From: an uncultured Eubacteriales bacterium
Lineage (GTDB): Bacteria > Bacillota > Clostridia > Oscillospirales > Oscillospiraceae
Length of the DNA: 38,205 bases
Direction: 5' to 3'
Assembly: GCA_949283375.1 (NCBI GenBank)
Contig: CASDSM010000011.1
Coordinates: 1-38,205 of the forward strand
Shown: positions 34,102 through 36,735 of the stretch, piece by piece
Position numbering within the stretch: the stretch's first letter is position 1
How the letters are laid out: every line of letters begins with the position of its first letter
The notes under the pieces: model-generated
What the model saw: the letters and a program-made list of their open reading frames with translations, nothing else
Told to the model about the DNA's origin: nothing
Database searches by the model: none
Program-made: the position numbers and the translations under genes

Positions 34102-35778
34102 ATGGAGCTTCCACGCAAAAACAGTGAGCATACAGTCACGATCACCGGCTACTCCAGCGCGGGGGAGGGGGTCGGACATCTGGAGTGCGGCCTGACCGTC
34201 TTTGTCCGGGGCGCGCTGCGCGGCGAGCGGTGCCGCATCTCCGTGCTCAAGGTGTCCAAACGCTGCGCCTGGGGGCGGCTGCTGGCGGTGGAGGAGGCCT
34301 CGCCCGCGCGCGTTGCGCCCGACTGCCCGTACTATCCCAGGTGCGGCGGCTGCCAGCTCCGGCACATGCGCTATGAGGAGGAGCTGTCCTTCAAGCTGGG
34401 GCGGGTGAACGACGCGCTGGAGCGCATCGGCGGGCTCGCCCTGCGCGCGGAGGTCATCCACCCCGCGCCCGAGCGGACGGCCTACCGCAACAAGGTGCAG
34501 TACCCGGTCAGTGCGGGGACGGATGGGCGCGTCAAGATGGGCTTTTACCGCCAGAGGAGCCATGACGTCATCAACGTGGAGCGCTGCCTGCTCCAGCCGG
34601 AGGGCTGCAACCGGTCGGGCTGGGAGGTGCGGGACTGGATGGAGGTGTTCGCCGTCCCTCCCTATGATGAGAAGACCCATACCGGGCTGATCCGCCATGT
34701 CTTCTGTCGCCAGAACAGCGCGGGAGAGCTCCTGATCTGTCTGGTGGCAAACGGCGGCCGCCTGCCTCACGAGGCGGAGCTGGTGCACAGCCTGCGCAGG
34801 TCCTTCCCGCAACTGGCCGGGGTGGTGCTCAACCGCAATACGGAGCGGACCAACGTCATTCTGGGGCCGGATTACCGCGTGCTGTGGGGGAAAGACCATC
34901 TCTGCGATACCCTCTGCGGCCTCACTTTCCGGCTGTCCGTGCCCTCCTTTTTTCAGGTCAACCGGGTCCAGGCGGAGGTGCTCTATCAGAGGGCCCTGGA
35001 CTTTGCCGGACTCACCGGACAGGAGACGGTGCTCGACCTCTACTGCGGCACCGGCACGATCAGCCTGGTGATGGCGCAGCGCGCCCGGCGGGTGATCGGC
35101 GCGGAGATCGTCCCGGAGGCGATCGAGGACGCCAGGGCAAACGCCCGCCGCAACGGCATGACCAATGCCGGATTCATCTGCGCCGACGCGGGACAGGCCG
35201 CCGGCGAGCTCGCCCGGCAGGGCATCCGTCCGGACGTCATCTCGGTCGACCCGCCGCGCAAGGGCCTCTCCGGCGAGGTGATCGGGGCGATCTGCCAGAT
35301 AGCGCCCGCGCGGGTGGTCTACGTCTCCTGCGACCCGGGCACGCTCGCCCGGGACCTGGCCCTGTTCGGGGAGCGGGGATACCGCGCGGAGAAAGCGGAG
35401 GCAGTGGATATGTTCCCGGGGACGGGGCATGTTGAGACGGTAGTTCTTTTGTCCCACAAAAAGCCAGACAGTTATATCCACATTGATGTGGAATTTGGCG
35501 AGGGCGAAGGCAAGATTCCAGTGGATAAAATTGTCCAGAGAGCAGAGAAATATAAGCCAAAAGAACGTGTTACTTACAAAAGAATCAAGGAATATGTTCT
35601 TGAAAAGTATGGCTTTAAGGTTCATACCGCTTATATTGCAGAGGTAAAGCGAAGTTTAGGGCTTCCTATGTATGATGCTCCCAATGCAGTTGAAGAATTG
35701 AAACAGCCCAGAAAGCATCCTACGCCAGAGAAAGTAGAAGCCATAAAGGATGCACTCCATTATTTTGCGGTAATATAG
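34102..35778 (+). CDS. rlmD: Chimeric RlmD-type 23S rRNA uracil-5-methyltransferase with an element-encoded C-terminal extension
   Basis: Residues 1-450 are a complete TrmA/RlmD-type enzyme, which methylates a 23S rRNA uridine with SAM. It has an N-terminal TRAM domain (about 6-63) and [4Fe-4S] cysteines C75, C81, C84 and C162. The SAM motif LDLYCGTGTISL is at 311-322, then SVDPPRKGL, nucleophile Cys410 in YVSCDPGTLARDL, and the usual terminal block MFPGTGHVETVVLL. Native proteins normally stop within a few residues of that block. Here the frame continues for 108 residues (451-558) in A/T-rich DNA with different codon use (AAA, TAT, AGA). The extension contains VTYKRIKEYVLEKYGFKVHT, which looks like a winged-helix-type fold, and a conserved-looking end, KVEAIKDALHYFAVI. 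I infer integration of an ICE into the 3' end of rlmD. Confidence 0.88.
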   Translation: MELPRKNSEHTVTITGYSSAGEGVGHLECGLTVFVRGALRGERCRISVLKVSKRCAWGRLLAVEEASPARVAPDCPYYPRCGGCQLRHMRYEEELSFKLGRVNDALERIGGLALRAEVIHPAPERTAYRNKVQYPVSAGTDGRVKMGFYRQRSHDVINVERCLLQPEGCNRSGWEVRDWMEVFAVPPYDEKTHTGLIRHVFCRQNSAGELLICLVANGGRLPHEAELVHSLRRSFPQLAGVVLNRNTERTNVILGPDYRVLWGKDHLCDTLCGLTFRLSVPSFFQVNRVQAEVLYQRALDFAGLTGQETVLDLYCGTGTISLVMAQRARRVIGAEIVPEAIEDARANARRNGMTNAGFICADAGQAAGELARQGIRPDVISVDPPRKGLSGEVIGAICQIAPARVVYVSCDPGTLARDLALFGERGYRAEKAEAVDMFPGTGHVETVVLLSHKKPDSYIHIDVEFGEGEGKIPVDKIVQRAEKYKPKERVTYKRIKEYVLEKYGFKVHTAYIAEVKRSLGLPMYDAPNAVEELKQPRKHPTPEKVEAIKDALHYFAVI

Positions 35779-35803: not shown

Positions 35804-35864
35804 CTTACATAGCCGTTTGTTCTTAACTTTAGAGCAAGCGGCTTTTTTTATTCCCTTACATAGC
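35804..35864. repeat. Direct repeats CTTACATAGC flanking the terminator
   Basis: CTTACATAGC occurs at 35804-35813 and again at 35855-35864, followed by C/T-GT in both. A related TTTACATA lies at 35781-35788. They bracket the terminator behind the rlmD chimera. They could be binding sites for element excision or replication proteins or a partition site for ParB. Confidence 0.5.
35812..35849 (+). terminator. Terminator behind the rlmD chimera
   Basis: GCCGTTTGTTCT pairs with AGAGCAAGCGGC (two G-U pairs) and is followed by seven T residues. It separates rlmD transcription from the element's parA-parB unit. Confidence 0.87.
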
Positions 35865-35913: not shown

Positions 35914-36735
35914 TTGAACACGCAAATCATCGCCGTCGCCAACCAGAAGGGCGGTGTCGGCAAGACAACGACCTGTGCCAACTTAGGCATCGGGCTGGCC
36001 CAGGCCGGAAAGAAGGTCCTGCTGGTGGATGCTGACCCACAGGCCAGCCTGACCATCAGCCTGGGCAACCCGCAGCCGGACAAGCTGCCCTTTACGTTGT
36101 CGGACGCGATGGGCCGCATCCTGATGGACGAGCCACTGCGCCCCGGCGAGGGTATCCTGCATCACCCGGAGGGCGTGGATCTCATGCCCGCTGACATCCA
36201 GCTGTCCGGCATGGAGGTGTCGCTGGTGAACGCTATGAGCCGCGAGACCATTCTGCGGCAGTATCTGGACACCGTGAAGGGACAGTATTCCCATATCCTG
36301 ATCGACTGCCAGCCATCCCTGGGGATGCTCACGGTCAATGCTCTGGCCGCCGCCAACCGGATCATAGTCCCCGTCCAGGCAGAGTATCTGCCCGCCAAGG
36401 GCCTGGAGCAGCTGCTGTCTACCATCAACAAGGTCAAGCGACAGCTGAACCCGAAGCTCCAGATTGACGGCATCTTGCTGACGATGGTGGACAACCGTAC
36501 CAACTTTGCCAGAGAGATTGCCGCCCTGCTGCGGGAGACCTATGGCAGCAAAATCAAGGTGTTCGGAACCGAGATACCCCACTCGGTCCGGGCCAAGGAG
36601 ACCAGCGCCGAGGGCAAGAGCATTTATGCTCACGACCCCGGCGGCAAGGTGGCCGAGGGGTACAAAAATCTGACGAAGGAGGTGTTGAAACTTGAAAAGC
36701 AGCGCGAAAAAAGTAGAGCTGGCATCGGTCGATGA
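35914..36735 (+). CDS. parA: ParA/Soj-type partition ATPase of the element
   Basis: The product is 273 residues. The deviant Walker A is NQKGGVGKTTT at 10-20 (signature Lys12, P-loop Lys17), motif A' is VLLVDADPQAS, and Walker B is HILIDCQPSLG. ParA proteins cooperate with ParB and a centromere-like site to segregate DNA; ICE-borne copies help maintain the excised circle. The start is TTG at 35914, seven bases behind AAGGAGG. The 3' end overlaps parB by 44 bases. GC returns to near host level, unlike the preceding segment. Confidence 0.93.
   Translation: MNTQIIAVANQKGGVGKTTTCANLGIGLAQAGKKVLLVDADPQASLTISLGNPQPDKLPFTLSDAMGRILMDEPLRPGEGILHHPEGVDLMPADIQLSGMEVSLVNAMSRETILRQYLDTVKGQYSHILIDCQPSLGMLTVNALAAANRIIVPVQAEYLPAKGLEQLLSTINKVKRQLNPKLQIDGILLTMVDNRTNFAREIAALLRETYGSKIKVFGTEIPHSVRAKETSAEGKSIYAHDPGGKVAEGYKNLTKEVLKLEKQREKSRAGIGR

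What the first reader, a model, noticed from the sequence alone, without database searches (positions are those of the whole stretch)
35430..35778. ICE integration swaps the end of rlmD for a 108-residue element-encoded domain
The rRNA methyltransferase frame passes through its native terminal block (HVETVVLL) into A/T-rich DNA and stays open for 108 codons. It ends just before a terminator and the element's parAB genes. Random foreign DNA would rarely stay open so long, and the extension looks like a folded domain (KYGFKVHTAYIAEVKR, then EKVEAIKDALHYFAVI). The element may therefore carry a promoterless domain designed to be fused to the host enzyme. That could keep the methyltransferase active, or give it a new RNA- or DNA-binding function linked to the element. 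From memory, similar tails occur on RumA-like proteins in other clostridial genomes; I could not search.
Basis: partly seen in the sequence, partly recalled or inferred. Interest (0 to 1): 0.75.

Follow-up and report, generated by a model that had tools for sequence, protein, structure and literature searches.

The report
Recombinase tail swapped onto host methyltransferase
A mobile element that inserts at the end of a ribosomal-RNA methylating gene has most likely left the end piece of its own DNA-cutting enzyme attached to the host protein, because its insertion site lies inside that enzyme's gene; such a swap was reported in streptococci, but here the piece is a conserved, portable domain that small defence-like gene cassettes also carry.

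Summary
rlmD (34102-35778) runs in frame through the att core (GTTGAGAC, 35431-35438) into a 108-residue AT-rich tail (40% GC against 68%), followed by a terminator-like hairpin and parAB. The tail is not a native RlmD domain and probably not a host-directed gadget. It is the C-terminal domain (CTD) of a large serine recombinase (LSR). Of 44 LSRs parsed, 28 end in a homologous CTD without the core and 16 read through the core into it. In integrated relatives the LSR lacks the tail; one element (26,749 bp, Blautia) shows both ends on one contig. The tail is under strong purifying selection (omega about 0.06). It moves independently of host RlmD (Spearman 0.04) and of core-bearing LSR bodies (0.12, against 0.60 for core-less LSRs). 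LSR-less cassettes with defence-like genes each start with a tail and stack beside rlmD. Reciprocal exchange of rumA and integrase 3' ends is published for streptococcal ICEs (PMC4701971); my searches found no account of the domain's identity, its in-frame portability or the cassettes. What the trade does is inferred. The window's own right end is not in the assembly.

The parts
34102..35451 (+). rlmD body, 23S rRNA (uracil-1939-C5)-methyltransferase, residues 1-450
   Evidence: TIGR00479 E 4.6e-126, residues 19-445
35407..35430 (+). host half of the att site: GATATGTTC, 12 bases, then CATGTTGAGAC; encodes DMFPGTGH
   Evidence: sequence; similar motif and spacing at right ends of some LSR-less cassettes. 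That this is a recombinase half-site is inference
35431..35438 (+). shared att core GTTGAGAC (codons of VET in HVETVVLL)
   Evidence: in the RlmD rows the left side follows rlmD and the right side follows the tail; 8-bp repeat at both ends of the G449 element
35452..35778 (+). element-encoded tail of 108 aa plus stop = C-terminal domain of a large serine recombinase, here fused to RlmD
35811..35843 (+). terminator-like hairpin and T run between tail and parA
   Evidence: 1 found, shuffles 0.8
35914..36735 (+). parA of the element
   Evidence: 91-93% identical to parA downstream of the tail in L066, L145 and L146
36692..37627 (+). parB of the element
   Evidence: TIGR00180 E 1.3e-31

Best explanation
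The tail is the C-terminal domain of the mobile element's own large serine recombinase (LSR). The element's attP core lies inside the recombinase gene, just upstream of the codons for that domain, and is read in the same frame as the matching codons (HVETV) at the end of host rlmD. In the excised circle, or when another tail-bearing unit lies next to it, the recombinase is read through the core into the tail (about 650-670 aa). Integration exchanges the 3' ends of the two genes in frame: RlmD receives the 108-residue tail (the window), and the recombinase is left with RlmD's short native end. Shown by comparison: both fused forms, the tail-less LSRs, the swap at both ends of one element, exchangeability of the domain, and purifying selection on it. 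Inferred: that the circle carries the full-length form; that the shortened LSR differs in activity or direction from the full-length one, so that the trade acts as an integration-state switch; that RlmD keeps working because its methyltransferase domain is complete before the core; and that the window's own missing right end carries such an LSR.
For: (1) 6 of 97 tail places in the genome-contig loci and 59 of 83 in the viral loci lie directly behind an LSR body. Of 44 distinct LSRs parsed from these 65 places, 28 carry the domain without the att core and 16 with it. The 7 scanned all have Resolvase, Recombinase and Zn-ribbon domains. (2) The window's left end (tail, parA, parB; 2.6 kb) is 79% identical to L066, where the tail is on RlmD, and to L145, where it is on an LSR. 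(3) Of 12 LSR-query matches in 20 tail-bearing genomes, 10 (L222-L231) lack the tail and end 8-34 residues after a VE core. Five of these 10 lie on the same contig as the genome's RlmD-tail, 27-53 kb away (contig lengths). The DNA after the core of L225, L227 and L229 matches the native rlmD end of tail-less congeners of the window, L012 or L015 (71-85% over 53-141 bp). (4) G449 has both ends on one contig, 26,749 bp apart, and joined flanks give an uninterrupted RlmD end; a closed tail-less RlmD with an end of that type exists (L270). (5) Median omega 0.045-0.065 in the type A groups of more than 50 pairs, no pair at 1 or above. (6) RlmD body versus tail identity over 1225 pairs: Spearman 0.04. 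(7) LSR body versus CTD: 0.12 with 13 of 120 pairs discordant when the core is in the gene; 0.60 with 0 of 378 when it is not; no-core subsets of equal size gave 0.36-0.80.
Against: The window's own recombinase and attR are not in the assembly; the only LSR-like gene found in the genome is unrelated (29% identity, mid-contig). Of the 10 tail-less LSRs, 5 are not on the contig of that genome's RlmD-tail or lie far from it (L224 about 645 kb away); L223, L224 and L230 have ends that resemble each other and other loci and were not shown to be rlmD ends. Many tails (73 of 221 places) have neither RlmD nor LSR upstream, and 18 of 18 tail-to-tail gaps hold no LSR, so LSR function alone does not explain why such cassettes keep a tail. 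The core/no-core label rests on an expression, with L085 set by hand.
Confidence: 0.88

Rival explanations
1. One reading: the tail is selected for what it does on RlmD (keeping the methyltransferase active, or giving it a new nucleic-acid-binding role that serves the element).
For: Tails on RlmD are conserved (omega 0.065); 63 of 68 RlmD-adjacent tails are in frame to their end (59 by script, 4 more by eye); LSR-less cassettes keep tails.
Against: Native RlmD in the 41 closed tail-less loci has only 7-21 residues after HVE; the same domain is a regular part of LSRs with no core and is conserved about equally in LSR-fused and silent contexts.
Confidence: 0.1
2. The tail DNA is kept only as an attachment-site arm; the protein reading is incidental.
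For: The junction lies at the core.
Against: Synonymous sites change freely while the protein is kept (type A median dS about 0.8-1.0, dN about 0.04-0.06); the domain is also kept in LSRs without the core.
Confidence: 0.02
3. Assembly chimera in this draft genome.
For: The contig ends 2.4 kb after the tail, and contigs of relatives often end near the tail.
Against: The same in-frame junction occurs in many independent genomes, cultured strains included.
Confidence: 0.02

Closest known systems
Streptococcal ICEs with a single serine integrase in rumA (Ambroset et al. 2016, PMC4701971; passages, section 23 and part 1 of section 31 read)
   Same: Insertion in rumA/rlmD; direct repeats in rumA and in the integrase gene; reciprocal exchange of the 3' parts of both genes; the authors expect the two integrase forms to differ in function.
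   Different: They state that the exchange changes the reading frame of both proteins; here the frame is kept and the exchanged part is a conserved domain. In what I read they describe neither that domain nor LSR-less tail-bearing cassettes.
Prophage Mx8 of Myxococcus (as cited in PMC4701971; original not seen)
   Same: attP inside the integrase gene; integration replaces a 112-residue integrase C-terminus by 13 residues and lowers activity.
   Different: Tyrosine integrase; the fate of the displaced end was not looked up.
SCC/ECC cassette chromosomes at rlmH (PMC6222049, passages read)
   Same: Large serine recombinases; insertion at the 3' region of an RNA methyltransferase gene; variable cargo. 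The LSRs here are CcrB-like outside the tail.
   Different: Different target gene and recombinases (scores far below the Ccr cut-offs); no domain trade described in the passages read.
Integration-dependent immunity of mycobacteriophage BPs (PMC4557955, abstract and outline)
   Same: attP inside a coding gene; integration changes the C-terminus of the product and so its activity.
   Different: The gene is a repressor and the lost part holds a degradation tag.
Engineered integrase-RDF fusions (PMC5737554, abstract and outline)
   Same: A domain fused to a serine integrase changes recombination direction; this shows the kind of effect the natural tail could have.
   Different: Synthetic; the tail is not shown to be an RDF.

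Membership tests
rumA/rlmD-targeting serine-integrase ICEs | insertion near the 3' end of rumA/rlmD | tested here: met
rumA/rlmD-targeting serine-integrase ICEs | direct repeat in rumA and in the integrase gene, with reciprocal exchange of 3' ends | tested here: inconclusive
   met in relatives; the window's right end is off-contig
rumA/rlmD-targeting serine-integrase ICEs | exchange shifts the reading frame of both proteins (as stated for streptococci) | tested here: not met
   in frame here and in 63 of 68 RlmD-adjacent places (4 by eye); the other 5 break later, inside the tail
rumA/rlmD-targeting serine-integrase ICEs | conjugation module (relaxase, coupling protein, VirB4) | not testable with these tools
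   only 2.4 kb of the element lies on the contig
Large serine recombinase C-terminal domain | homologous domain at the C-terminus of proteins with Resolvase + Recombinase + Zn ribbon domains | tested here: met
   7 of 7 LSRs scanned
SCC/ECC cassette chromosome | insertion in rlmH with ccrAB | tested here: not met
   target is rlmD; CcrB model scores 202 and 231 bits against a cut-off of 900 for the two relatives' LSRs scanned
Native RlmD domain | present in orthologues in general | tested here: not met
   41 closed tail-less ends, 9 tails, 8 cut by contig ends and 1 without a frame among 59 loci read

The most novel reading that the evidence does not exclude
The tail is a shared, portable recombination-control domain of a whole community of elements at rlmD. 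ICEs, phages and LSR-less defence cassettes each carry one at their left end. A recombinase parked without its domain regains one from whichever cassette sits next to it (as in L085/G216). Cassettes thus supply the missing domain and borrow the recombinase, and RlmD-tail is the parking form that may act in trans at attL. This would be an integron-like array built on a naturally split serine integrase.
Probability: 0.22. Interest if true: 0.85.

Novelty: new variant of a known kind. Interest (0 to 1): 0.6.

Why it matters
It explains a common annotation oddity: RlmD proteins with an unexplained 100-residue tail, and orphan 'hypothetical proteins' such as WP_002294510.1 beside lsa(E)-lnu(B). It offers natural pairs of long and short serine integrases for asking how C-terminal domains set recombination direction. 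It gives a sequence tag for finding cassette arrays with defence-like cargo at rlmD in gut Firmicutes, and perhaps a reason why draft contigs often end at this locus.

Tried and rejected
Tail as a Pfam, NCBIfam or solved-structure family: none (the best PDB profile match, E 0.046, was not pursued). PHROG 27283 (unknown function) matches the tail at E 7.5e-10. Near-identical DNA in plasmids: none at megablast level. The own genome's only LSR-like gene (C16) was read and rejected as the element's recombinase (its neighbourhood L220 was fetched but not read). My first intactness script overran stops and was redone; that expression also misjudges rows, so I make no intactness comparison. The core expression gave false positives (for example L172, L177, L210-L213); that (0.14 against 0.61) missed the second LSR of L169, so the test was repeated with L085 set to 'core' by hand. 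One search's expression missed most rows and was replaced; one search's lengths were wrong in places and were replaced. The call of L024 as tail-less and four 'not in frame' rows (L024, L055, L059, L138) were corrected by eye. Pairs with dS below 0.15 or saturated were dropped from the omega medians. PADLOC is not specific enough alone: all 10 cassette proteins tested hit, but so did 3 of 6 control proteins. PMC12904643 and PMC10044541 (passages) concern other insertion sites or rumA insertions without the domain.

Full report
Observation. Window 34102-35778 encodes a 558-aa RlmD whose family match ends at residue 445. After HVETVVLL the frame stays open for 108 residues of AT-rich DNA (0.404 against 0.682 GC), ending before a terminator-like hairpin and parAB. 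The chance of 108 open codons at that composition is 0.00043. The tail has no ATG before its residue 73, though GTG or TTG codons occur at residues 13 and 24. The finding is real and its coordinates are right.

The tail is widespread and is not a native RlmD domain. It comes in two alignable types. I read 59 RlmD loci: the 29 after the window's own and the 30 best, so a sample. Of these, 41 end natively 7-21 residues after HVE, 9 carry a tail (one, L024, missed by the script), 8 are cut by contig ends and 1 gave no frame. Two native ends (L018, L027) begin like a tail and may be scars.

Where the tail comes from. Across 221 tail places in 193 loci, 68 sit directly behind RlmD, 65 directly behind a large serine recombinase, 9 near one, 73 behind neither, and 6 at contig edges. 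The loci were chosen by tail similarity, so these proportions are not those of nature. From the 65 LSR-adjacent places I parsed 44 distinct LSRs: 28 continue into the tail-like domain with no att core, and 16 do so through a VETVVLL-like core, among them L073, L085, L105, L132 and L145. Seven LSRs scanned all carry Resolvase, Recombinase and Zn-ribbon domains. The window's element is seen in two states in close relatives: L066 (RlmD-tail-parAB) and L145 (LSR-tail-parAB) match the window's left end at 79% over 2.6 kb. A third, L146, has neither RlmD nor LSR upstream. Whether L145 is a circle, a tandem or something else is not known.

The reciprocal product. In 20 genomes that hold a tail (20 of the 79 loci, picked by hand), an LSR query matched in 12. 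Ten (L222-L231) have no tail and end 8-34 residues after a VE core, for example VETVCLLSRKDK. L221 is the LSR of L085, which carries a tail because a cassette follows it. L232 is another protein. DNA after the core of L225, L227 and L229 matches the native rlmD end of tail-less congeners of the window (L012, L015; 71-85% over 53-141 bp). The ends of L223, L224 and L230 resemble each other and other loci, and I did not show them to be rlmD ends. In G449, the genome of L104 (Blautia massiliensis), the two cores lie 26,749 bp apart and share GTTGAGAC, and joining the host flanks gives an uninterrupted RlmD end, SNRKPDTTVKLSVDMDDYYRI. A closed tail-less RlmD with an end of that type occurs in G170 (L270), and similar ends stand behind the last core-like junction in L141 and L119.

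Selection and exchange. Type A tails (92 of 132 intact tails) give a median omega of 0.045-0.065 in all context groups of more than 50 pairs, with no pair at 1 or above. Type B (40) gives 0.16-0.22, with most pairs saturated. The sequences were found by protein similarity, which biases dN downward, but hardly to this degree. In 50 RlmD fusions, body and tail identity are unrelated (1225 pairs, Spearman 0.04, p 0.17). The window and its congener G010 share 79% of RlmD but 39% of tail; the window and L066 share 32% of RlmD but 89% of tail. The model predicts that LSR bodies and tails are shuffled only when the core lies in the gene. This holds: Spearman 0.12 (16 LSRs, 13 of 120 pairs discordant) against 0.60 (28 LSRs, 0 of 378); 200 no-core subsets of 16 gave 0.36-0.80.

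Cassette arrays. Of the 79 genome loci, 17 hold more than one tail. The 18 gaps between neighbouring tails are 1.3-6.4 kb, and none contains an LSR match. Cargo in the arrays examined includes AbiEi/AbiEii, an AriA/PtuA-like ATPase, a PD-T4-6-like kinase, HEC-06/SspE-like proteins, a type II methyltransferase and PDC-S02/S05 candidates. All 10 proteins tested matched PADLOC, but 3 of 6 control proteins did too, so 'defence-like' rests on the near-full-length AbiE, methyltransferase and PDC matches and the kinase domain. Downstream of 33 RlmD-fused tails with at least 2.5 kb of flank, 9 have a parA within 4.5 kb, as in the window. In G216, contig C2 reads RlmD-tail, then LSR-tail, then tail, on one strand, so there an LSR has a tail supplied by its neighbour.

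Prior art. PMC4701971 (passages, section 23 and part 1 of section 31) reports reciprocal exchange of the 3' parts of rumA and serine integrase genes in streptococcal ICEs and expects functional differences between the two integrase forms. It says the exchange changes the frame of both proteins, which is not so here. PMC5357655 and PMC7168690 (passages) report more rumA insertions, and the latter tandem accretion of elements. PMC12785378 (passages) reports rlmD as a prophage site in Erysipelothrix. My seven paper searches returned no description that I saw of the tail as a conserved LSR domain or of LSR-less tail cassettes. Only listings and the parts named were read, and most subscription journals are not held.

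Judgement. That the tail is an LSR C-terminal domain traded through an attP in the recombinase gene is well supported. What the trade achieves is inferred; the nearest tested analogues are Mx8 (as cited in PMC4701971), the BPs repressor and engineered integrase-RDF fusions. The window's own right end remains unseen.

Noticed in passing
L121, L141, L085, L077, L106, L097: Stacked 2-4 kb units, each starting with a tail and carrying defence-like genes but no recombinase, lie between rlmD (or an LSR) and the next tail.
   Followed up: partly
L085, L097, L105, L106, L117, L120, L121, L141, just upstream of silent tails: The right ends of some LSR-less cassettes resemble the rlmD end (GATATGTTC, about 12 bases, CA[TC]GT, GAGAC). 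GATATGT[TC] occurs within 120 bases upstream in 16 of 39 genome-contig places with neither RlmD nor LSR upstream, against 0.01 expected per window.
   Followed up: partly
L002:6001-6282 (Enterococcus plasmid pY13): A tail-like ORF (WP_002294510.1, 'hypothetical protein') sits among the resistance genes of an lsa(E)-lnu(B) cluster, as if the cluster once travelled through an rlmD element. 97 plasmid records hold a tail match; only this one was opened.
   Followed up: no
L003, L004 (Streptococcus suis phages YS162, YS387): Phages carry type B tails: fused to rum in YS162; in YS387 the tail stands alone behind resistance genes.
   Followed up: no
L169, L174, L176: Two LSRs in tandem: the first has the tail domain without a core, the second has a core-like motif before it.
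   Followed up: no
L018, L027 (same genus): Native-length RlmD ends that begin like a tail (SQQ..., SKGEIDS*), possible scars of lost elements.
   Followed up: no
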